Below, in pieces: positions 1,637-9,312 of a stretch of DNA of 12,109 nucleotides. A program made the position numbers and the translations under genes. The notes below the pieces were generated by a model. The model was not told the DNA's origin, searched no databases, and saw only the letters and a program-made list of their open reading frames with translations. This stretch comes from Gemmatimonadota bacterium (lineage in GTDB: Bacteria > Latescibacterota > UBA2968 > UBA8231), in NCBI GenBank assembly GCA_002712305.1, contig PATE01000054.1:26770-38878 (forward strand), given 5' to 3'. Each line of letters starts with the position of its first letter. Positions within the stretch are counted from its first letter, which is position 1.

Positions 1637-3535
1637 TCAATTGGCTGGCGTTTGGCGCTGGCCTCGGGCGTGGAGCAAGACCATCAGAGCAGAGATGTCC
1701 GCCGGTGAGACGCCACTGACCCGGGCCGCCTGACCCACCGTCGCCGGTTGCAGGCTGGCGAGTTTCTGTCGCGCCTCCGTCGACAGGGGCTGGGCCTCGG
1801 CATCGTAGTCGAAGTCGACGGGGATGCGATGTGCCTCCAGTCGCTTCAGGCGTGCGATGTCGTCGGCCTGGCGCTCCACGTAACCGGCGTATTTCACCGT
1901 CGCCTCGATATGTTCGCCCGCATCTGCCGTCAGCCTCGTCGGTGGTGGGGCGAGTTCGACGACGTCTTCGTATCGCAGTTCAGGACGACGAAGGAGCTCG
2001 ACAAGGGAGGCCGACTCTCTCAGTGGTGTCGATCCCCGCTGCCGCAGCATGTCATCGACGGCCGTGCCCGGCGCTAGTCGCTGTGATTCGAGTCTCTTCA
2101 GTTCCGCCTCCGTCTGCAGCTGTTTGTCGAGAAACCGCTGCCAGGATTCGTCGGAGACCAGGCCATGGTCCCGGCCAAAGGCCATCAAGCGCATGTCGGC
2201 ATTGTCTTCGCGCAGTTGCAGTCGGTATTCAGCGCGCGAGGTGAAGATGCGATAGGGTTCATCGGTCCCCTTGGTCACCAGATCGTCGATGAGTACGCCG
2301 ATGTAGGCATCGGCTCGATCGAGGACAAAGGGGTCTTCGCCACGTCGCTGCAAGACGGCATTGACCCCCGCCATCAGCCCTTGGGCGCCGGCCTCTTCAT
2401 ATCCCGTGGTGCCATTGATCTGTCCTGCGAAGAACAGACCCGATACGCGTTTGGTCTCGAGCCAGGGATGCAACTGGGTGGGGGGGGCGTAGTCATACTC
2501 TACCGCGTAGGCAGGGCGCATCATCTGCGCATTCTCCAGACCGGGTAACGAACGGAGAATCGATCCCTGCACGTGCTCGGGCAGGCTCATGGACAGACCG
2601 TTGATGTAATACTCGTGCGTGCGAATGCCCTCGGGTTCGACAAAAATCTGATGGCGATCCTTGTCGGCGAAGCGCACAATCTTGTCTTCAATGGATGGAC
2701 AGTAGCGCGGCCCCACGCCCTCGATTCGCCCACTGTACATGGCGGAGTGTTCGAGATTGCTGCGGATCAACTCGTGAGTGGCCTCACCGGTGTAGGTGAT
2801 CCAGCAGGGCAACTGTGGAAGCTGCGGTGTATCGATGGCATAGGAGAAGGTCCTGGGAGGATCGTCCCCGGGCTGAATCTCCATCGCATCAAAATCGATC
2901 GTGCGACCATTGACGCGTGGCGGAGTTCCAGTCTTCATCCGTCCCGTTTCGAATCCCAGGCTCACGAGACCCTCCGCGGCGGCGACAGCGGCTGTCTCAC
3001 CGGCTCGTCCAGCGGCATAGTTCACATCACCGACATGGATCTTGCCCCGCAGGAAGGTTCCCGTCGTGAGCACGACGGTTTTGCTGAAGTAACGGATGCC
3101 ACCCCGCACTCCGACACCGCGAACATGCCCTTTCTCGACGAGCAGCTCCTCCATCAAGCCCTGACGAACGTGGAGGTGCTGTTCGCCCTCGCAGGCGTAT
3201 TTCAGCTCGAATTGATAGACCTTCTTGTCACACTGGGCACGGGATGCGCGCACGGCGGGGCCCCGTCGCGTGTTGAGGCGCCGAAACTGAATCCCCGCCA
3301 GATCAGTGTTGATGGCCATCTGCCCACCGAGAGCATCGATCTCTTTGACCATGTGTCCCTTGCCGATCCCACCGATGGCCGGATTGCAGGACATTTGCCC
3401 GATCGTATCGAGGTTGATCGTGAGTAGAAGGGTCGTTGCCCCCATGCGGGCGGCGGCGAGCGCCGCTTCAGTCCCCGCGTGTCCTCCACCCACGACGATG
3501 ACATCGTAGGCCGGATGATCGGCCGACTCAGACAT
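1637..3535 (-). CDS. mnmG: tRNA uridine-5-carboxymethylaminomethyl modification enzyme MnmG (GidA)
   Basis: MnmG, with the GTPase MnmE, installs carboxymethylaminomethyl at U34 of certain tRNAs using 5,10-methylene-THF, FAD and NADH. The product is 632 residues, close to the E. coli length. Visible motifs are the N-terminal FAD site [10 protein letters not shown] (about 14-23), [12 protein letters not shown], the TTGTFLRG segment, [19 protein letters not shown], the [13 protein letters not shown] region, and the C-terminal helical domain with [13 protein letters not shown] at 3535 is chosen because it gives a normal N-terminus, has GGAG 7 nt upstream, and overlaps the preceding stop in ATGTCTGA. 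A longer reading from 3574 adds an unlikely Arg/Pro-rich extension. It is the last gene of the minus-strand unit and is translationally coupled to the PF13769-type gene. Identity is certain. Confidence 0.97.
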
Positions 3536-3860
3536 CCTCGGGCTCCGTGGTGAGCGTCGGTGTGTCACGGGCATCTGGTTCTTGGGCCTCTGGTTCTTGG
3601 GTTTCAGGGGCGTGGTCGGCGATCAACTGGTCGACGGTCTGACGCAGAAGCTGCTGGGCATCTCCTTCACATTCCTGCTTCGAGGACCAGTTCCACTGGG
3701 CAAGGTATTCGTCGGTGCCGGCCAGTCCCTCGCGCATGGCGATACGATCGATGTGCTGCTGGAATCGATCGGGAAGCTGCTCGGTCAGGGGACGGCGGCC
3801 ATCGAAGACGCGGACCTGCGCTGGGATCTGGCGCCAATAGAGAATCTGTATCTGTGGCAC
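3528..3860 (-). CDS. Small 'virulence factor' family protein (PF13769-type), C1/corrinoid cluster associated
   Basis: This 110-residue cytoplasmic protein has the recognisable family pattern: [11 protein letters not shown] (residues 5-15), then [25 protein letters not shown] and a WNW segment, followed by an acidic tail. From recall the family is named 'virulence factor' in Pfam, but its members commonly sit beside metF, methyltransferase and corrinoid genes in bacteria with no link to disease. The name should not be taken literally and the molecular function is not established. The start is GTG at 3860, 15 nt after the homocysteine methyltransferase stop; the start of mnmG overlaps its stop by 8 nt. 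The tail holds a repeated QEP motif from a 15-bp tandem duplication. Its place in the operon supports a role in methyl or C1 metabolism. Family call is good; function unknown. Confidence 0.82.
3574..3601. repeat. Imperfect 15-bp tandem duplication inside the PF13769-type gene
   Basis: tctggttcttggg occurs at 3574-3586 and again at 3589-3601, a period of 15 bp (five codons). It encodes the repeated EPEAQEP/TQEP residues of the acidic tail. It is probably a small replication-slippage expansion in an unstructured region. Confidence 0.8.
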
Positions 3861-3875
3861 GTGAGGCGCCCTGCC

Positions 3876-4871
3876 TTAGGCGTCGAGGACGGCGCGGAAG
3901 GCACCGATGTGCTCTGGCGTGGTGCCACAGCAGCCGCCGACCATCCACGCCCCCGTCGCCAGCAGAGCAGGCAACTCGGCGCTCATCTGATCGGGGTCCT
4001 GCAGGTAATAGGTCTCCTTCGTCTGCCGATCCATCTTTGGCAGTCCCGCGTTGGGATAGGCCGCCAGGCGCAAGCCGTCGAGACCCCGCTGTGCCAGGGC
4101 TTCGGAGGTCTGCCGAGTACCCTCGATGGCGTAGGCCATCCCCGAGTGATCCTCTCTGCTTGCTTCCGCGCCACAGTTGAGACCAAGCATGTGGATGGAC
4201 GGGAGCAGGTCGACGCCATCGGAGTGTGCACCGGATGCCAGAATGTCAATGGCATCCGGTGGGCCGTGGCCCCAGTCGGTCTTGTATTGAATCTGCTTCG
4301 TCTTGCGGTCCTGCGTGAACTTGTACGTCAGACTGACACAGATGGGCAGACCAAAATGACGAGCCACATCGACGGCGATGGCCGCTTCGCGCGCCGAGAA
4401 CATGGTCTCCACGAGGAAGAAATCAACGCCCGCGTCTGCAAGAGACGTGGCGATGCGCTCGTGTGCATCACGCACCTTGGCATCGGCAATGCCGAAGTCG
4501 GTGTCTCCCGCGTCGGCCTCGATCGCCCCCGGAGACGGGCCGAGGGCGCCGGCGATATAGATCTCGCGATCTGCCGCCTCGGCGGCACGACGAGCATGTT
4601 CGGTGGCCAGGACGGCAAGCTGTTCAGGGCTCGCGTCTCCCGCGTCGGCCATCTCCAGATGCAGCGGGGAGGCGACGAAGGTGTTCGTCTCGATCACCTC
4701 CGATCCTGCCGTCACATACGCTCGATGTACGTCGACGACGGCCTCTGGATGTGATCGGTTGGCCAGTGCCGAATTCGGCAACTCCACGCCTCGGGCGAAC
4801 AACTGCGTACCAAAACCCCCATCGAACAGCAGGGGGCGGTCATCTTGGAGGCGAGCTGCGAATCGGGACAA
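3876..4871 (-). CDS. Homocysteine S-methyltransferase family protein (stand-alone Zn-dependent domain)
   Basis: This 331-residue TIM-barrel protein of the Hcy-binding family (MetH N-terminal domain, BHMT, MmuM) transfers a methyl group to homocysteine to give methionine. Seen here: LLFDGGFGTQLFARGVE near the N-terminus, VIETNTF, GLNC with Cys233, and GGCCGT with Cys314/Cys315. These are the three Zn-ligand cysteines of the family, all present. The TTG at 4871..4869 is taken as the start: GAGG sits 5 nt upstream, and the longer reading from 4970 would run inside the preceding gene and add unrelated residues. The start lies 16 nt after the RACo-type stop. With a separate corrinoid protein and activator in the same operon, the likely methyl donor is the methylcorrinoid protein, giving a split methionine-synthase-like arrangement. 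Methylated thiols or betaines as direct donors cannot be excluded. Confidence 0.9.
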   Translation of the reverse strand: MSRFAARLQDDRPLLFDGGFGTQLFARGVELPNSALANRSHPEAVVDVHRAYVTAGSEVIETNTFVASPLHLEMADAGDASPEQLAVLATEHARRAAEAADREIYIAGALGPSPGAIEADAGDTDFGIADAKVRDAHERIATSLADAGVDFFLVETMFSAREAAIAVDVARHFGLPICVSLTYKFTQDRKTKQIQYKTDWGHGPPDAIDILASGAHSDGVDLLPSIHMLGLNCGAEASREDHSGMAYAIEGTRQTSEALAQRGLDGLRLAAYPNAGLPKMDRQTKETYYLQDPDQMSAELPALLATGAWMVGGCCGTTPEHIGAFRAVLDA

Positions 4872-4876
4872 AGCGA

Positions 4877-4880
4877 CCTC
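4877..4880 (-). promoter_or_regulatory. Ribosome binding site GAGG deciding a TTG start
   Basis: Read on the minus strand, GAGG is followed by 5 nt and then TTG at 4871..4869. It sits in the short gap after the stop of the RACo-type gene and supports TTG as the start of the homocysteine methyltransferase. Confidence 0.6.
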
Positions 4881-4887
4881 GTTGCAG

Positions 4888-6519
4888 TTAGGGAAGCATG
4901 GGCTGGAACATACAGCCGTCGACGAAGGCGTCGAAGAAGGTGGGGTCCGTCTCCAATTCGACGTGATCAATCTGGGGCACGATCTGTTCCAGGCGCGTGC
5001 GTCGCTGTCGATCGATCAAGACCTCACGGGCTCCTTGCAGGGCAGCGTTGCCGATTTTCTCGACGCGTTCGGCGGCGACAGGTACGATGAAGCCGATGGC
5101 CATGGCATTGTCGACGTCGATGTAGTTGGCAAATCCACCGGCCAGGTACAATCGGTCGATGCCACTCGCATCGACGCCAAACTGACGCATCAGCAGCAAC
5201 TGACCGCAGTAGTTGGCCGCCTTCGCCTGAGCAAGGTGTGAGGCATCTTCAGATGAGAAGGTAATACCGCGTGCTTCGTCGAGCAGGACCGACTGATTTC
5301 TCTCGCGCCCATCACCGATGACACCCCGTTCGGACATCATCTCTGATCTGCGCAACTCCGCCAGCAGGTCGACGAGACCGGATCCGCAGATTCCGACCGG
5401 TGCTGCGTCACCGATCACTCGACAGCCAAAGTTGCCATCTCCATCGATGGTGACACTCTCGATCGCGCCTTCATATCCGGGCATGCCATACTGTACGAGC
5501 CCTCCCTCGAAAGCCGGGCCCGCAGGCGAGGAGGCCGCCAACATGCGGCCCTTTCCCGCGATGATGACCTCTGTGTTGGTGCCCACATCTACCAGCATGA
5601 CGATCTGGTCGTCCGGTGGCTCGAGCAGATCGATGGCGACCAGGTCGGCGGCCGTATCGGCGCCTACATGGCTTGCGATCAGGGGCAAGCCGTAGACACG
5701 CGTATGAATGTTGGCCCGCAGACCGAGTCGTCGAGAGCGTTCAACCACCGCTGTCGTACCACGCTCGCCGTTGCGGAAGGCTTCCTCCACCGTGGACTTG
5801 TACGGTCGCGTTCCGATGGGCTGCACATCCAGCCGAAAAAGGAGGTCGCGCATGGTCGAGTTGCCGGCGATGGTGATTTCGTAGATCTCCTGGCGCCGGA
5901 AGCCGAACTTTTCGCCCATATTGGCAATGTGGCGATTGATCGCAGTTGTGACCGCCTTCTGCAACTCGCCGTGGTGCGGGCCCCCGTCGTAGGAGATCCG
6001 ATTCATCACATCGGAGCCACCGAAGCGCTGAGGGTTCTCAAAAGCCACCACCGACAGACTGTCTCCGGTCAGCAGATCGATCAACTCCATGACGATCGTC
6101 GTCGTACCCAGGTCAACGGCAAGGCCCAGGACATGCCCACGAAAGGTGTCTACCCGTTCGCCGTCGTAGTACACGTTTGTGCCGTCGAGGGTCACCATGG
6201 GGTTGAGGTCGACCTCCCGTGACTGGCTGGCAGACAGGATCTGCGGGGTGCGACGCAGGGGGGTGAACCGTACGTCAGTTCCCTCCTCCTCGATCCGCGC
6301 CTGACACGCAAGTCGGTAGGGCGGGGAGAGGAAGGACTCTGCCTGGGTGAGGGGGGAGAGTTGCTCTGCGCCCTGCTCGACAGCCACGACGCACTCGTGG
6401 CAATAGCCATTTCGCAAGCAGGAGGTCGGTACCTGCACCTGCAGGTCATCGGCGTAGTCGAAAAGCGTTCGTCCCTTGATCAGTGGCAGTCTCTGATCCC
6501 CACACCCCACATCAGCCAT
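4888..6519 (-). CDS. RACo-type corrinoid activation protein (2Fe-2S ferredoxin domain plus ASKHA ATPase)
   Basis: This 543-residue protein is expected to couple ATP hydrolysis to reduction of inactive Co(II) corrinoid to Co(I). Residues about 1-90 form a ferredoxin domain with the C-X5-C-X2-C-X28-C cluster set Cys34, Cys40, Cys43 and Cys72. The ASKHA part follows, with nucleotide-site motifs DLGTTT (136-141), DVGTNTE (311-317), SSPAGPAFEGG (330-340), GICGSGL (377-383) and YLAGGFANYID (458-468). It is shorter than the roughly 600-630 residues I recall for acetogen RACo proteins, so the linker or middle region is compact. ATG at 6519 overlaps the upstream stop in ATGGCTGA. It lies three genes after the MtaA-like methyltransferase and two after the corrinoid protein, its likely partner. 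The fold and role are well supported; the exact partner is inferred from context. Confidence 0.92.
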   Translation of the reverse strand: MADVGCGDQRLPLIKGRTLFDYADDLQVQVPTSCLRNGYCHECVVAVEQGAEQLSPLTQAESFLSPPYRLACQARIEEEGTDVRFTPLRRTPQILSASQSREVDLNPMVTLDGTNVYYDGERVDTFRGHVLGLAVDLGTTTIVMELIDLLTGDSLSVVAFENPQRFGGSDVMNRISYDGGPHHGELQKAVTTAINRHIANMGEKFGFRRQEIYEITIAGNSTMRDLLFRLDVQPIGTRPYKSTVEEAFRNGERGTTAVVERSRRLGLRANIHTRVYGLPLIASHVGADTAADLVAIDLLEPPDDQIVMLVDVGTNTEVIIAGKGRMLAASSPAGPAFEGGLVQYGMPGYEGAIESVTIDGDGNFGCRVIGDAAPVGICGSGLVDLLAELRRSEMMSERGVIGDGRERNQSVLLDEARGITFSSEDASHLAQAKAANYCGQLLLMRQFGVDASGIDRLYLAGGFANYIDVDNAMAIGFIVPVAAERVEKIGNAALQGAREVLIDRQRRTRLEQIVPQIDHVELETDPTFFDAFVDGCMFQPMLP

Positions 6520-6832
6520 CGTCCTGTTCCTCAGAAGTCGATCGCGCGTCGCGCGTCTTCTTCAGCTTCGCCCGAGCCCGTTCTACGGCGTTCGGATCCG
6601 TCTCCCACGCGCTTCGGTAGTCGAATTGTCCATCGTGGCTACACAGCAGATCCTCGGTCTTGGCGACGGGCTTTTGATTCCGGCATTTGAACTTGGCTGT
6701 GCACAGATCGTGCCGGTCGCGATAGGGGCAGCGCTCGGCGGCCTGGGCATCGGCATGGGTGGCCATGTCACCAAGGATCGACGACAGACGATCAAATCGT
6801 TTCTGCACCTCAACCGGATCGATCCGGGCCAT
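6512..6832 (-). CDS. Small four-cysteine protein of unknown function in the corrinoid operon
   Basis: The 106-residue product is not recognised. Residues 1-32 look like an amphipathic helix (VEVQKRFDRLSSILGDMATHA). The middle holds CPYRDRHDLC (Cys35, Cys44), then Cys50 and Cys64 (LLCSHDG), together with His41 and His66, a set that could bind a metal ion or Fe-S cluster. The C-terminal third is rich in Lys/Arg and Asp/Glu. It has no signal peptide or membrane segment. The ATG at 6832 is 9 nt after the corrinoid protein stop, and its own stop overlaps the RACo-type start by 8 nt. That placement between carrier and activator suggests an accessory role such as redox or docking, but this is inference only. 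Confidence 0.78.
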   Translation of the reverse strand: MARIDPVEVQKRFDRLSSILGDMATHADAQAAERCPYRDRHDLCTAKFKCRNQKPVAKTEDLLCSHDGQFDYRSAWETDPNAVERARAKLKKTRDARSTSEEQDDG

Positions 6833-6841
6833 TGGCCTATC

Positions 6842-7591
6842 TCATGCGTTGATGCCGAGCAACTGCTTGGCCAGTGCCACACAGGCCAGGGCATCCTTGC
6901 CATACCCATCGGCACCCATGTCCTCGGCGAATTCCTGTGTGACGGGGGCACCACCTACCATAATCTGTACATCCTCTCGCAGATCGGCATCGATGAAGGC
7001 CTCAATCGTCTTGCCCATGTTCGGCATCGTCGTCGTCAGCAGGGCGGACATTCCCATCACCTGCGCCCCTGATTCCTCAACGGCGTCGATAAATTCATCA
7101 GCCGATGTATCTACACCGAGATCGACCACGTCGAATCCTGAGCCTCTCAACATCATATTGCACAGATTCTTGCCGATGTCGTGGAGGTCTCCCTTCACGG
7201 TGCCCATCACAATCGTGCCGGCCTTTTCGATTCCCGATGCAGAAAGAATGGGTTCGATGTGGGCCATGCCCGCTTTCATGGCTCGGGCGCAGGCGAGGAC
7301 CTCCGGAACGAAGATGAAATTCTCCCGGAACTTGATCCCCACAATCCCCATCCCCGCGATCAGGCCGTCATCCATGACCTCGAGGGCCTCGATCCCGTCG
7401 GCCAGAGCCTTCTGCGCCAATTCATCGACAAGATGATGTTCTCCCGCGATCAACGCCGCAGCCATGTCCTGGTGAATCGGACGGGCGGCGCTGAACAGGT
7501 CGATCAGCCGCTGAATCTCCTCCGGATGCTCGACGTACTCCTTGATTTCGAAGCGAATATCCTCGTTGCCGATGTCACTCAGTTCAGCCAT
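6842..7591 (-). CDS. Corrinoid (B12-binding) methyl carrier protein, MtaC/MtbC/MtgC type
   Basis: This 249-residue cytoplasmic carrier shuttles a methyl group on cobalt. Residues about 20-115 form the helical cap domain (IQRLIDLFSA...ALIAGEHHLVDELAQKAL). The B12-binding Rossmann domain follows with the diagnostic GDLHDIGKNL, where His137 is the expected lower cobalt ligand, then later elements VDLGVDTSADEF, MGMSALLTTTMPNM and MVGGAPVTQEFA with the downstream GADGYGKDA. It is somewhat longer than the roughly 210 residues typical of MtaC-like proteins, mostly through about 20 extra N-terminal residues. The ATG overlaps the MtaA-like stop in ATGGCTGA, implying coupled synthesis of enzyme and carrier. 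The family call is secure; which methyl group it carries is not shown by the sequence. Confidence 0.95.
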   Translation of the reverse strand: MAELSDIGNEDIRFEIKEYVEHPEEIQRLIDLFSAARPIHQDMAAALIAGEHHLVDELAQKALADGIEALEVMDDGLIAGMGIVGIKFRENFIFVPEVLACARAMKAGMAHIEPILSASGIEKAGTIVMGTVKGDLHDIGKNLCNMMLRGSGFDVVDLGVDTSADEFIDAVEESGAQVMGMSALLTTTMPNMGKTIEAFIDADLREDVQIMVGGAPVTQEFAEDMGADGYGKDALACVALAKQLLGINA

Positions 7592-8627
7592 TCGGGTGCT
7601 CGGCGTGCCAGGTTTTCACGGCGGCTGGGATGGCCTGCAGGTTTTCCAGTGATGTCTGCAGCGGAATCGCACACTCAGGGCCGATCAGAGGAACCCCCGC
7701 ATCAAGGTTTGCGAACACTTCAGTCTCCACGTCTTGAGGTTCTCGAGCGAACAAGGTTTCAGGATTGTTGATGTTGCCCACCAGCGCGATGCGATCCTCG
7801 ACAATCGACATCGATTCGGCCGGCGTGTTCTTCGAATCAAAGTGGAAGGCCGCCATCCCCGTCTCGGCGATATACTGCATCCGATCTACTGTCCGGCCGC
7901 AGATATGAAGGATGATGGGACAGGACAGACTCTGGGCAAACTCGATATGCAGATCGCGTAGATAACGCTCGTAGTATTCGCCACTGACAAGGTCACCCGT
8001 GGCGTGATCGGGCAGGGTGAGTGCGTCGGCTCCGGCTTCGATCTGAGCGATACCGAAATCGACGGTTACCTGCTTCAGGTGATCAAGAATTCTGCGTGTC
8101 TGGTCAGGGTCGTCGAGGGACATCAGCAAGAAGGCTTCGACACCGAAGCAGTGGTAGGCAAGCGACCAGGGGCCCATGGTCTTGCCAATGATGGCGACCT
8201 CGTCCCCGTAGTCGCGGCGCAGCAAGCGAATCGCTTCCAGCACACAACTCGTGTCGGGGTGAGTCAGCAGATCCTTGGGGATCTCGATGTCCTGCGCCGT
8301 TTTCCAGATCGGCTGACTCATGCGTACGGTGGGCCAGTTGTCCTTCTGCTCCCACTGGATGTTGCAGCCCAGGGCAGAAGACTCCTGGATGATGCTGAAG
8401 ACGGGCATGACCGAGTCGAATCCGAGTTCGGTGTAGCCCGTGGCCGCCAATCGTGCCATGCGTTCAGGTTCACGATTGGCCTGTGGAAAGGGTGCATCTA
8501 CAAGATCCATCAGTTCCACAGTCGCCACGGATGTCGGATTGCAGATCGGCGTGCGATCCGTCGCTTCGCCACGCAGGGCGGCCAATACACGTTGGCGGCC
8601 ATTCATGGATGCCGGAGCGCTTGTCAT
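7584..8627 (-). CDS. MtaA/CmuA-like corrinoid methyltransferase (uroporphyrinogen decarboxylase fold)
   Basis: The 347-residue protein belongs to the UroD superfamily branch that includes MtaA, MtbA and CmuA, which move methyl groups between corrinoid proteins and thiols or other acceptors. Evidence: NGRQRVLAALRGEATDRTP at the N-terminus, GPWSLAYHCFG, and the Zn-site pattern LHICG (His241, Cys243) with Cys319 in GPECAIP. The PxWxMRQAGR motif of true HemE is absent, so it should not be called uroporphyrinogen decarboxylase. The start at 8627 has AAAGGA 5 nt upstream; a longer reading from 8807 would overlap the preceding gene and lacks family sequence. It lies 10 nt after the duplicated-motif gene and overlaps the corrinoid gene by 8 nt. 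It may demethylate an unknown methyl donor or methylate a thiol; the direction is undetermined. Confidence 0.9.
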   Translation of the reverse strand: MTSAPASMNGRQRVLAALRGEATDRTPICNPTSVATVELMDLVDAPFPQANREPERMARLAATGYTELGFDSVMPVFSIIQESSALGCNIQWEQKDNWPTVRMSQPIWKTAQDIEIPKDLLTHPDTSCVLEAIRLLRRDYGDEVAIIGKTMGPWSLAYHCFGVEAFLLMSLDDPDQTRRILDHLKQVTVDFGIAQIEAGADALTLPDHATGDLVSGEYYERYLRDLHIEFAQSLSCPIILHICGRTVDRMQYIAETGMAAFHFDSKNTPAESMSIVEDRIALVGNINNPETLFAREPQDVETEVFANLDAGVPLIGPECAIPLQTSLENLQAIPAAVKTWHAEHPNG

Positions 8628-8632
8628 CGTGG

Positions 8633-8638
8633 TCCTTT
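8633..8638 (-). promoter_or_regulatory. Ribosome binding site AAAGGA for the MtaA-like gene
   Basis: On the minus strand AAAGGA precedes the ATG at 8627 by 5 nt and abuts the stop of the upstream gene. It settles the start against the longer in-frame reading. Confidence 0.7.
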
Positions 8639-9312
8639 CATCGCTGCGCACTGGGGGCAGCCAACACGCCTCGGGCGGCGGCGGCCTCTTGTTCACGGAC
8701 CAGGGCCCGTACGTTGGGGGCACGTTGCAGGAGGAGGCCGACCAGAGCGTCGTGATCGTGGCCGCAGGCAAAGCTGACGCAATCGTTGAGCAGTTGACCG
8801 TCAGCATCCTCTACAGCAAGCATATCGCCGAGTTTCCGCAGGCCATTCACGATGACCCCCACGCGTCGCGCACCATTGTCGGCGTCTTCGGGTGGGTTGC
8901 CCGCTTCATCGGTTGCCTCGATGCGATACTGGCCATCACCGAGACCACGCGCCTGGATGGTCAGTCCTGATTTCCGATCGACAATGTTCAGATCGCAGGG
9001 GGTCGCCGACCCGGGCTCTGGCAATTTGCAACTTTCGAGAAAGGCGCGCTTCATCGCCAACAGATGATCCTGTCCGCAGTCGAAACACAGACACGTTGGG
9101 CCGCCTTGACCGGGTTGCAGGCCACCCAATCGGCAGATTCCGTCGACCACGTCCATGACTCGCTGCTGGGCACCGGGCAGTTCAGAGTAGGAATGAGCGC
9201 GATACTCGGGTGGATTCTGCTCGGTGCGATACAGGGCAATACTGATATCCTGATGGTGCGGATCCATCGAATGGAGTTCGACACGACGCCCCAGGTCAAG
9301 GAGACGACTCAT
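8638..9312 (-). CDS. Unrecognised protein with two copies of a C-x2-F-x-C-G-x-D-H domain
   Basis: The 224-residue product matches no family I recognise. It contains an internal duplication. Copy 1 runs about residues 22-95 with VVDGICRLGG (55-64) then CLCFDCGQDH (74-83); copy 2 about 115-205 with IVNGLRKLGD (154-163) then CVSFACGHDH (178-187). In both the motif is C-x2-F-x-C-G-x-D-H followed by a helix of the LLAMKRAFLE / ALVGLLLQRA kind. The repeat offset is 104 residues at the motif. Two Cys and one His per copy suggest a metal-binding or redox site, but that is inference. There is no signal peptide. The ATG has GAGAGGG 5 nt upstream and overlaps the GHL10 stop in ATGA; the MtaA-like start follows its stop by 10 nt. 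Its position suggests a helper or regulator of the methyltransferase system. Confidence 0.85.
   Translation of the reverse strand: MSRLLDLGRRVELHSMDPHHQDISIALYRTEQNPPEYRAHSYSELPGAQQRVMDVVDGICRLGGLQPGQGGPTCLCFDCGQDHLLAMKRAFLESCKLPEPGSATPCDLNIVDRKSGLTIQARGLGDGQYRIEATDEAGNPPEDADNGARRVGVIVNGLRKLGDMLAVEDADGQLLNDCVSFACGHDHDALVGLLLQRAPNVRALVREQEAAAARGVLAAPSAQR

What the first reader, a model, noticed from the sequence alone, without database searches (positions are those of the whole stretch)
3528..9312. Split corrinoid methyl-transfer operon ending in homocysteine methylation, with no visible methyl-donor enzyme
An MtaA-like Zn methyltransferase, a corrinoid carrier with DLHDIG, a RACo-type activator and a stand-alone homocysteine S-methyltransferase lie in one tightly packed unit. 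Together they contain three MetH-like functions (homocysteine site, B12 carrier, reactivation by ATP-driven reduction instead of SAM), but there is no folate-binding domain and no MttB/MtaB-type enzyme. A route from an unknown methyl compound to methionine via the MtaA-like protein is one reading. Another is that the missing donor enzyme is encoded elsewhere.
Basis: partly seen in the sequence, partly recalled or inferred. Interest (0 to 1): 0.75.

Follow-up and report, generated by a model that had tools for sequence, protein, structure and literature searches.

The report
MtaA-like methyl donor feeding methionine synthesis
These bacteria carry a conserved set of genes that seems to take a methyl group off an unidentified small (probably sulfur- or selenium-bound) molecule, load it on a vitamin-B12 protein and use it to make methionine, a route that runs beside the usual folate route and includes two previously unnamed protein families.

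Summary
In detail: in one packed minus-strand run lie an MtaA/CmuA-family Zn methyltransferase (His-Cys-Cys site), a corrinoid protein, a RACo-type activator and a stand-alone homocysteine methyltransferase. The set is conserved in Latescibacterota- and Poribacteria-labelled MAGs (MtaA-like protein 73-92% identical). 'No visible donor' is lineage-specific: several relatives carry MetF-MetV and a folate:corrinoid methyltransferase in this operon, and the sister genome has complete MetH. Its absence here is unproven (contig ends at that spot). In many relatives MetH and this set coexist, with no separate folate methyltransferase, MttB or MtaB found; there the MtaA-like enzyme is the only visible donor-side enzyme. 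Best reading: methylated thiol or selenol -> MtaA-like:U224 -> corrinoid protein -> homocysteine -> methionine; donor unproven. It works like the Ruegeria MtgBCDE system with an Mlp-type donor enzyme, but meets neither that definition nor that of type 1 mlp clusters. New variant of a known kind.

The parts
8638..9312 (-). U224: unnamed protein family (two-fold repeat with a CxxxH motif in each half); lies directly upstream of the MtaA-like gene; likely partner subunit of the MtaA-like enzyme
   Evidence: No Pfam or NCBIfam match. Adjacent to the MtaA-like gene in 95 of 113 loci, the rest mostly contig ends, imprecise ORF limits or distant paralogues; some genomes are counted twice. Confident model, pLDDT 92, no clear PDB match. 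Invariant C79, H83, C183, H187.
7584..8627 (-). MtaA-like (MtaA/CmuA, URO-D fold) Zn methyltransferase, 347 aa; proposed donor-side enzyme
   Evidence: Pfam and NCBIfam; 31.6% identical to M. mazei MtaA 4AY7 with His240, Cys242, Cys318 aligned to its HxC...C residues.
6842..7591 (-). Corrinoid methyl-carrier protein (cap + B12-binding, DLHDIG)
   Evidence: PF02607 and PF02310; closest solved structure 1Y80, E 2e-58; Asp135/His137 conserved in 34 sequences.
6512..6832 (-). C106: four-Cys domain (RCPY..CTA.F.C..C..DYR.AW), proposed metal or Fe-S accessory of the activator
   Evidence: No Pfam match; C35, C44, C50, C64 invariant in 31 sequences; fused to the N-terminus of RACo in other genera and in Poribacteria.
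4888..6519 (-). RACo-type ATP-dependent corrinoid reductive activator with N-terminal 2Fe-2S domain
   Evidence: PF00111, PF17651, PF14574; matches RACo structure 3ZYY, E 9e-65.
3876..4871 (-). Stand-alone homocysteine S-methyltransferase (TTG start inferred)
   Evidence: PF02574 5.6e-51; closest solved structures are MetH homocysteine domains; Zn cysteines C226, C307, C308 conserved in 18 sequences (numbering of that construct).
3528..3860 (-). PF13769 ('virulence factor') small protein; accessory of corrinoid/folate methyl-transfer loci
   Evidence: Pfam; homologues lie between corrinoid/DUF1638 and MetV/MetF genes on S. meliloti and Azoarcus replicons and beside corrinoid/DUF1638 genes in Terrarubrum.

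Best explanation
The operon encodes a folate-independent entry into methionine. Inferred chain: (1) the MtaA-like Zn enzyme with its partner U224 takes the methyl group from a small methylated compound, most likely with a sulfur or selenium leaving group, and passes it to Co(I) of the corrinoid protein; (2) the stand-alone homocysteine methyltransferase moves it to Zn-bound homocysteine, giving methionine; (3) RACo, helped by its 2Fe-2S domain and the four-Cys C106 domain, uses ATP to re-reduce Co(II). In relatives that also carry MetF-MetV and MeTr in the operon, the same carrier can exchange methyl groups with folate. Shown here: the domains, metal-site residues, conservation, linkage and the absence of other detectable donor enzymes in several relatives. 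Inferred: direction of transfer, donor type and the roles of U224 and C106.
For: Domain and residue checks. Conserved linkage U224-MtaA-CorP-C106/RACo-HMT in Latescibacterota-labelled genomes; in Poribacteria-labelled genomes two units, U224-MtaA and CorP-RACo-HMT, with CorP in 6 of 6 genomes. Genomes with a full MetH keep the set: f3 genus g9, including single-contig G026 and G029, and 5 of 6 Poribacteria. In the g9 genomes no separate MeTr, MTTB or MtaB was found, and the MtaA-like query found at most one other weak URO-D homologue per genome, so the MtaA-like enzyme is the only visible donor-side partner of the carrier. The His-Cys-Cys Zn triad is the pattern that PMC10418091 assigns to S/Se (not O) methyltransferases. 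CmuA and MtsA are precedents for MtaA-fold enzymes on the donor side (own knowledge).
Against: No donor was identified and no activity is known for any member of this clade. MtaA itself works on the acceptor side. In several genera the operon contains a folate methyltransferase, so folate may be the main donor there and the MtaA-like enzyme could methylate a thiol. In this genome MetH may only be hidden by an assembly gap. An unannotated donor enzyme of another family cannot be excluded. In L211 (Poribacteria) no homocysteine methyltransferase lies near the carrier.
Confidence: 0.55

Rival explanations
1. A split, folate-dependent methionine synthase like that of Phaeobacter: methyl-folate loads the carrier through a MeTr encoded in the operon or elsewhere, and the MtaA-like enzyme is a side branch. 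In this genome the MeTr or MetH gene is in the unassembled part.
For: Operons with MetF-MetV-MeTr-HMT in genera g4, g6, g7 and g12. Nearly all relatives have either MetH or a MeTr. The sister genome has full MetH, and the contig here ends beside it. PF13769, kept here, goes with folate-type loci in Proteobacteria.
Against: G025-G031, G033, G036 and most Poribacteria tested have full MetH, and the g9 genomes no MeTr, yet keep MtaA-CorP-RACo-HMT. The MtaA-like and corrinoid proteins are the best conserved members.
Confidence: 0.2
2. The MtaA-like enzyme works on the acceptor side, as in methanogens: it moves the methyl group from the carrier to a thiol, making a methylated thiol, while folate or another source loads the carrier.
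For: Its closest characterised relative is MtaA, 31.6% identity, a corrinoid:coenzyme M methyltransferase. The Zn site is built for thiols.
Against: In genomes without any visible loader the carrier would have two acceptor enzymes and no donor.
Confidence: 0.15
3. The carrier is loaded by the genome's MttB-family protein from a quaternary amine such as glycine betaine, as in Ruegeria MtgB.
For: One MTTB-family gene in this assembly, 693 bits.
Against: It lies on contig C88, with 66.5% GC and deviating tetranucleotide make-up (0.82 versus 0.95-0.98 for the other contigs compared), so it is probably mis-binned. MTTB was found in only 7 of 40 relatives although the operon is near universal.
Confidence: 0.05

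Closest known systems
MtgBCDE / split methionine synthase of Ruegeria pomeroyi and Phaeobacter inhibens (PMC12478193, PMC5764234)
   Same: Separate corrinoid protein, homocysteine methyltransferase and RamA/RACo-like activator; optional folate arm on the same carrier; dual supply of one carrier.
   Different: Donor enzyme there is MttB-family MtgB for glycine betaine; here an MtaA-fold protein with partner U224. No DUF1638 in this operon; C106 is extra; folate enzyme absent from this genome as assembled.
Type 1 mlp gene clusters (Kountz and Balskus, PMC10418091)
   Same: MtaA-like protein with His-Cys-Cys Zn site, corrinoid protein and Ram/RACE activator in one operon; hosts almost always have SelD.
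   Different: Only one MtaA-like protein instead of two or three; 18-24% identity to the three Mlps of an Acetoanaerobium cluster; has its own homocysteine acceptor; relatives carry a folate methyltransferase in the operon.
MtaA/MtbA/CmuA methyltransferases
   Same: Fold family, Zn ligands, subfamily score above cut-off.
   Different: Below the MtaA and MtbA equivalog cut-offs; forms its own clade; not fused to a corrinoid domain as CmuA is (own knowledge).
Folate-independent core methionine synthases MesA-C (PMC7857596)
   Same: Methionine made from a methyl-corrinoid protein without a folate domain.
   Different: Mes proteins are MetE-type (PF01717); here the acceptor is a MetH-type PF02574 protein with a dedicated small carrier.

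Membership tests
Type 1 mlp gene cluster | At least two MtaA-like proteins (Mlps) | tested here: not met
   One URO-D gene in the operon; the only other hit of the MtaA-like query in this genome is on contig C25, 27% identity.
Type 1 mlp gene cluster | Corrinoid protein and Ram/RACE in the same direction within 2 kb | tested here: met
Type 1 mlp gene cluster | No folate methylase homologue within 20 kb | tested here: met
   Only PF00809 match in this genome is on contig C141; but not met in several relatives.
Type 1 mlp gene cluster | His-Cys-Cys zinc triad | tested here: met
   His240, Cys242, Cys318, aligned with 4AY7 and with the Acetoanaerobium Mlps.
Split methionine synthase (Phaeobacter/Ruegeria type) | Stand-alone homocysteine methyltransferase and stand-alone corrinoid protein | tested here: met
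Split methionine synthase (Phaeobacter/Ruegeria type) | Stand-alone pterin-binding methyltransferase in the genome | tested here: inconclusive
   None in G000, which is 91% complete; present in the operon of several relatives.
Split methionine synthase (Phaeobacter/Ruegeria type) | RamA/RACo-like ferredoxin + ASKHA activator | tested here: met
Split methionine synthase (Phaeobacter/Ruegeria type) | DUF1638 protein with the carrier | tested here: not met
   No DUF1638 hit in the fetched loci of this operon; seen only in the separate loci L061 and L185.
MtaA/CmuA subfamily (TIGR01463, NF004889) | Score above the curated subfamily cut-off | tested here: met
   248 vs 235.4 and 263 vs 244 bits.
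MtaA (methanol-specific, NF040654) | Score above the equivalog cut-off | tested here: not met
   244 vs 400 bits.
RACo activators | RACo middle and C-terminal ASKHA domains with Fer2 | tested here: met
Any of the above | Measured methyl donor and acceptor | not testable with these tools
   Needs enzymology.

The most novel reading that the evidence does not exclude
A dedicated methyl-selenium (or methyl-sulfur) reclaiming methionine synthase: MtaA-like:U224 demethylates methylselenol, dimethylselenide or a methyl-thioether, the methyl group goes straight through the corrinoid protein to homocysteine, and freed selenide or sulfide returns to metabolism. U224 would be a new obligate subunit of an MtaA-fold enzyme and C106 a new accessory domain of RACo. 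Consistent with SelD, mostly read through one in-frame TGA, in 61 of the 63 searched genomes that carry the MtaA-like gene; but these are few independent lineages, and two of three genomes without a detected ortholog also have SelD.
Probability: 0.25. Interest if true: 0.8.

Novelty: new variant of a known kind. Interest (0 to 1): 0.55.

Why it matters
Methionine synthesis from non-folate methyl groups is known mainly from glycine betaine, S-methylmethionine and the anaerobic core synthases. Here an MtaA-type enzyme, so far tied to methanogens and to clusters of unknown acceptor, is linked directly to a homocysteine acceptor and a B12 carrier, in groups of uncultured bacteria (mostly Latescibacterota and Poribacteria labels). 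If the donor is a methyl-sulfur or methyl-selenium compound, this would give the MtaA-like clusters a defined methyl sink and a testable role in sulfur or selenium cycling. It also names two unrecognised protein families and puts the misnamed 'virulence factor' PF13769 into one-carbon metabolism.

Tried and rejected
1) Donor enzyme elsewhere in this genome: one MttB gene, on contig C88 of deviating composition and rare in relatives; judged probably mis-binned. MtaB: none in 40 genomes. 2) Claim that the organism lacks MetH: withdrawn, because contig C130 ends where the sister's metH block begins. 3) Strict MetH-or-MeTr exclusion across relatives: not seen; g4, g6 and G024 have both, while nearly all have at least one. 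4) Substrate clue from Poribacteria neighbours: TRAP-transporter genes and a GCV_T protein upstream of CorP, but no consistent metabolic clue beside U224-MtaA. 5) U224 fold: Foldseek best E 7.5e-3; VIA best Z 7.0, over the N-terminal half only; no usable relative, which does not show that the fold is new. 6) C106 fold: model with pTM 0.40, no match. 7) CmuA as tree reference: not among the listed plasmid hits; tree made with 4AY7 and Acetoanaerobium Mlps, where long branches limit placement. 8) Library papers found no description of this system in Latescibacterota or Poribacteria; most subscription journals are not held. 9) Core-MetE-like PF01717 proteins occur in nearly all relatives and were not assigned.

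Full report
Observation. The window is G000:C75:26770-38878 of a 4.77 Mb, 146-contig assembly, 91% complete. On the minus strand, in order of transcription and with overlapping or nearly abutting ends, lie U224 (9312-8638), the MtaA-like gene (8627-7584), the corrinoid protein (7591-6842), C106 (6832-6512), RACo (6519-4888), the homocysteine S-methyltransferase (4871-3876, TTG start inferred), PF13769 (3860-3528) and mnmG.

Parts. The MtaA-like protein passes the MtaA/CmuA subfamily cut-offs but not the MtaA or MtbA equivalogs. It is 31.6% identical to M. mazei MtaA (4AY7), and His240, Cys242 and Cys318 align with its HxC...C residues. The carrier is closest to 1Y80 and to MetH and methylamine carriers. 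The activator has Fer2, RACo middle and C-terminal domains. The homocysteine enzyme is closest to MetH homocysteine domains, with the Cys + Cys-Cys zinc ligands conserved. U224 has no family match; AlphaFold gives a confident model (pLDDT 92) with a repeated motif and invariant CxxxH in each half, without a clear PDB match. C106 has four invariant cysteines; it is a separate gene here and fused to the N-terminus of RACo in other genera and in Poribacteria.

Conservation. In a search of 40 genomes (this one and its relatives), 37 have a close match (74-92% over the aligned stretch in relatives); G002, G003 (46% homologue) and G032 do not. A scan of genome contigs gave 80 loci at 74-92%, labelled mostly Candidatus Poribacteria and Latescibacterota, with some labelled Gemmatimonadota, Acidobacteria, Spirochaetaceae, Alphaproteobacteria and Verrucomicrobia (MAG labels, not verified here). 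U224 is next to the MtaA-like gene nearly everywhere, even where the carrier is elsewhere. In Poribacteria the carrier, the C106-RACo fusion and the homocysteine enzyme form a second unit in four of five fetched loci.

The missing donor. In genera g4, g6, g7 and g12 the operon includes MetF-MetV (PF02219+PF12225) and/or a folate:corrinoid methyltransferase (PF00809). PF13769 is found in the same kind of locus in Azoarcus and Sinorhizobium, and its retention here fits loss of the folate genes from an ancestral operon (inference). Full MetH, about 1220-1250 aa, is present in about half the relatives and in 5 of 6 Poribacteria. In the sister genome G001 it has all domains, activation domain included. 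In G000 no MetH or MeTr was found, but contig C130 ends exactly where the sister's metH block would begin, so absence is not shown. The MttB gene of G000 lies on contig C88, whose composition deviates.

Direction. In the g9 genomes (two of them single contigs) and in most Poribacteria tested, MetH coexists with MtaA-CorP-RACo-HMT. No separate MeTr was found in the g9 genomes, MttB was found in none of the f3 genomes and MtaB in none of the 40 relatives. There the carrier has only two visible partners. As the homocysteine enzyme is an acceptor, the MtaA-like enzyme is most simply the donor-side enzyme. This is inference from absence.

Donor type. His-Cys-Cys zinc sites are assigned to S/Se methyltransferases and carboxylate-substituted ones to O-methyltransferases in PMC10418091. 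The same paper shows weak methylcobalamin:selenide activity for one MtaA-like protein, cites genetic evidence for dimethylselenide use in Methanococcus voltae, and proposes selenium recycling or methionine salvage. Here SelD passes its cut-off in 61 of the 63 searched genomes that carry the MtaA-like gene, usually with one in-frame TGA, versus 2 of 14 control genomes. Because few independent lineages are involved and two of the three genomes without an ortholog also have SelD, this is only suggestive.

Known relatives. It works like Ruegeria MtgBCDE, where one carrier serves glycine betaine demethylation, folate and methionine, but with a different donor enzyme. It is not a type 1 mlp cluster, having one MtaA-like protein; identity to the three Mlps of an Acetoanaerobium cluster is 18-24%. 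No paper found in the library describes it. Verdict: real, conserved, a new variant of corrinoid-dependent methionine formation, with an unproven donor.

Noticed in passing
G000:C93:47061-47981 and 60 further genomes: SelD is almost universal in these groups and nearly always read through one in-frame TGA, suggesting SelD is itself a selenoprotein and that these lineages use selenocysteine.
   Followed up: partly
L061 3923-12248 (G001:C66): Second corrinoid locus: URO-D protein with altered zinc ligands (His-Asp-His in the alignment), carrier, DUF1638, an 899-aa fusion of folate methyltransferase, MetF and MetV, another URO-D protein and a formate-THF-ligase-like gene; looks like an O-demethylation locus.
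   Followed up: partly
window 3528-3860; L222-L224: PF13769, annotated 'virulence factor', sits inside corrinoid/MetF/MetV loci of Proteobacteria; in Terrarubrum it is annotated as a long protein. The name is misleading.
   Followed up: partly
L177 (G000:C88): MttB-family gene among Rieske oxygenase-like, PhyH-like and peptidase-like genes on a contig of deviating composition; likely mis-binned.
   Followed up: partly
L002 1369-3360 (G000:C39): YitJ-like fusion of a homocysteine methyltransferase and MTHFR, the second PF02574 protein of this genome; role unclear.
   Followed up: no
L207-L210: In Poribacteria the CorP-RACo-HMT unit follows TRAP-transporter components (TAtT, DctP) and a GCV_T protein in L207, with genes of similar length upstream in L208-L210; possible substrate link.
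   Followed up: partly
L052 6970-7713 and equivalents: A divergent GntR/FCD regulator lies upstream of U224 in several genera and some Poribacteria; possible regulator of the set.
   Followed up: no
L221 4335-7668 (Thiodictyon plasmid): Three-gene unit cobalamin protein / URO-D (one zinc Cys replaced by Ala in the alignment) / ASKHA protein without a known acceptor.
   Followed up: no
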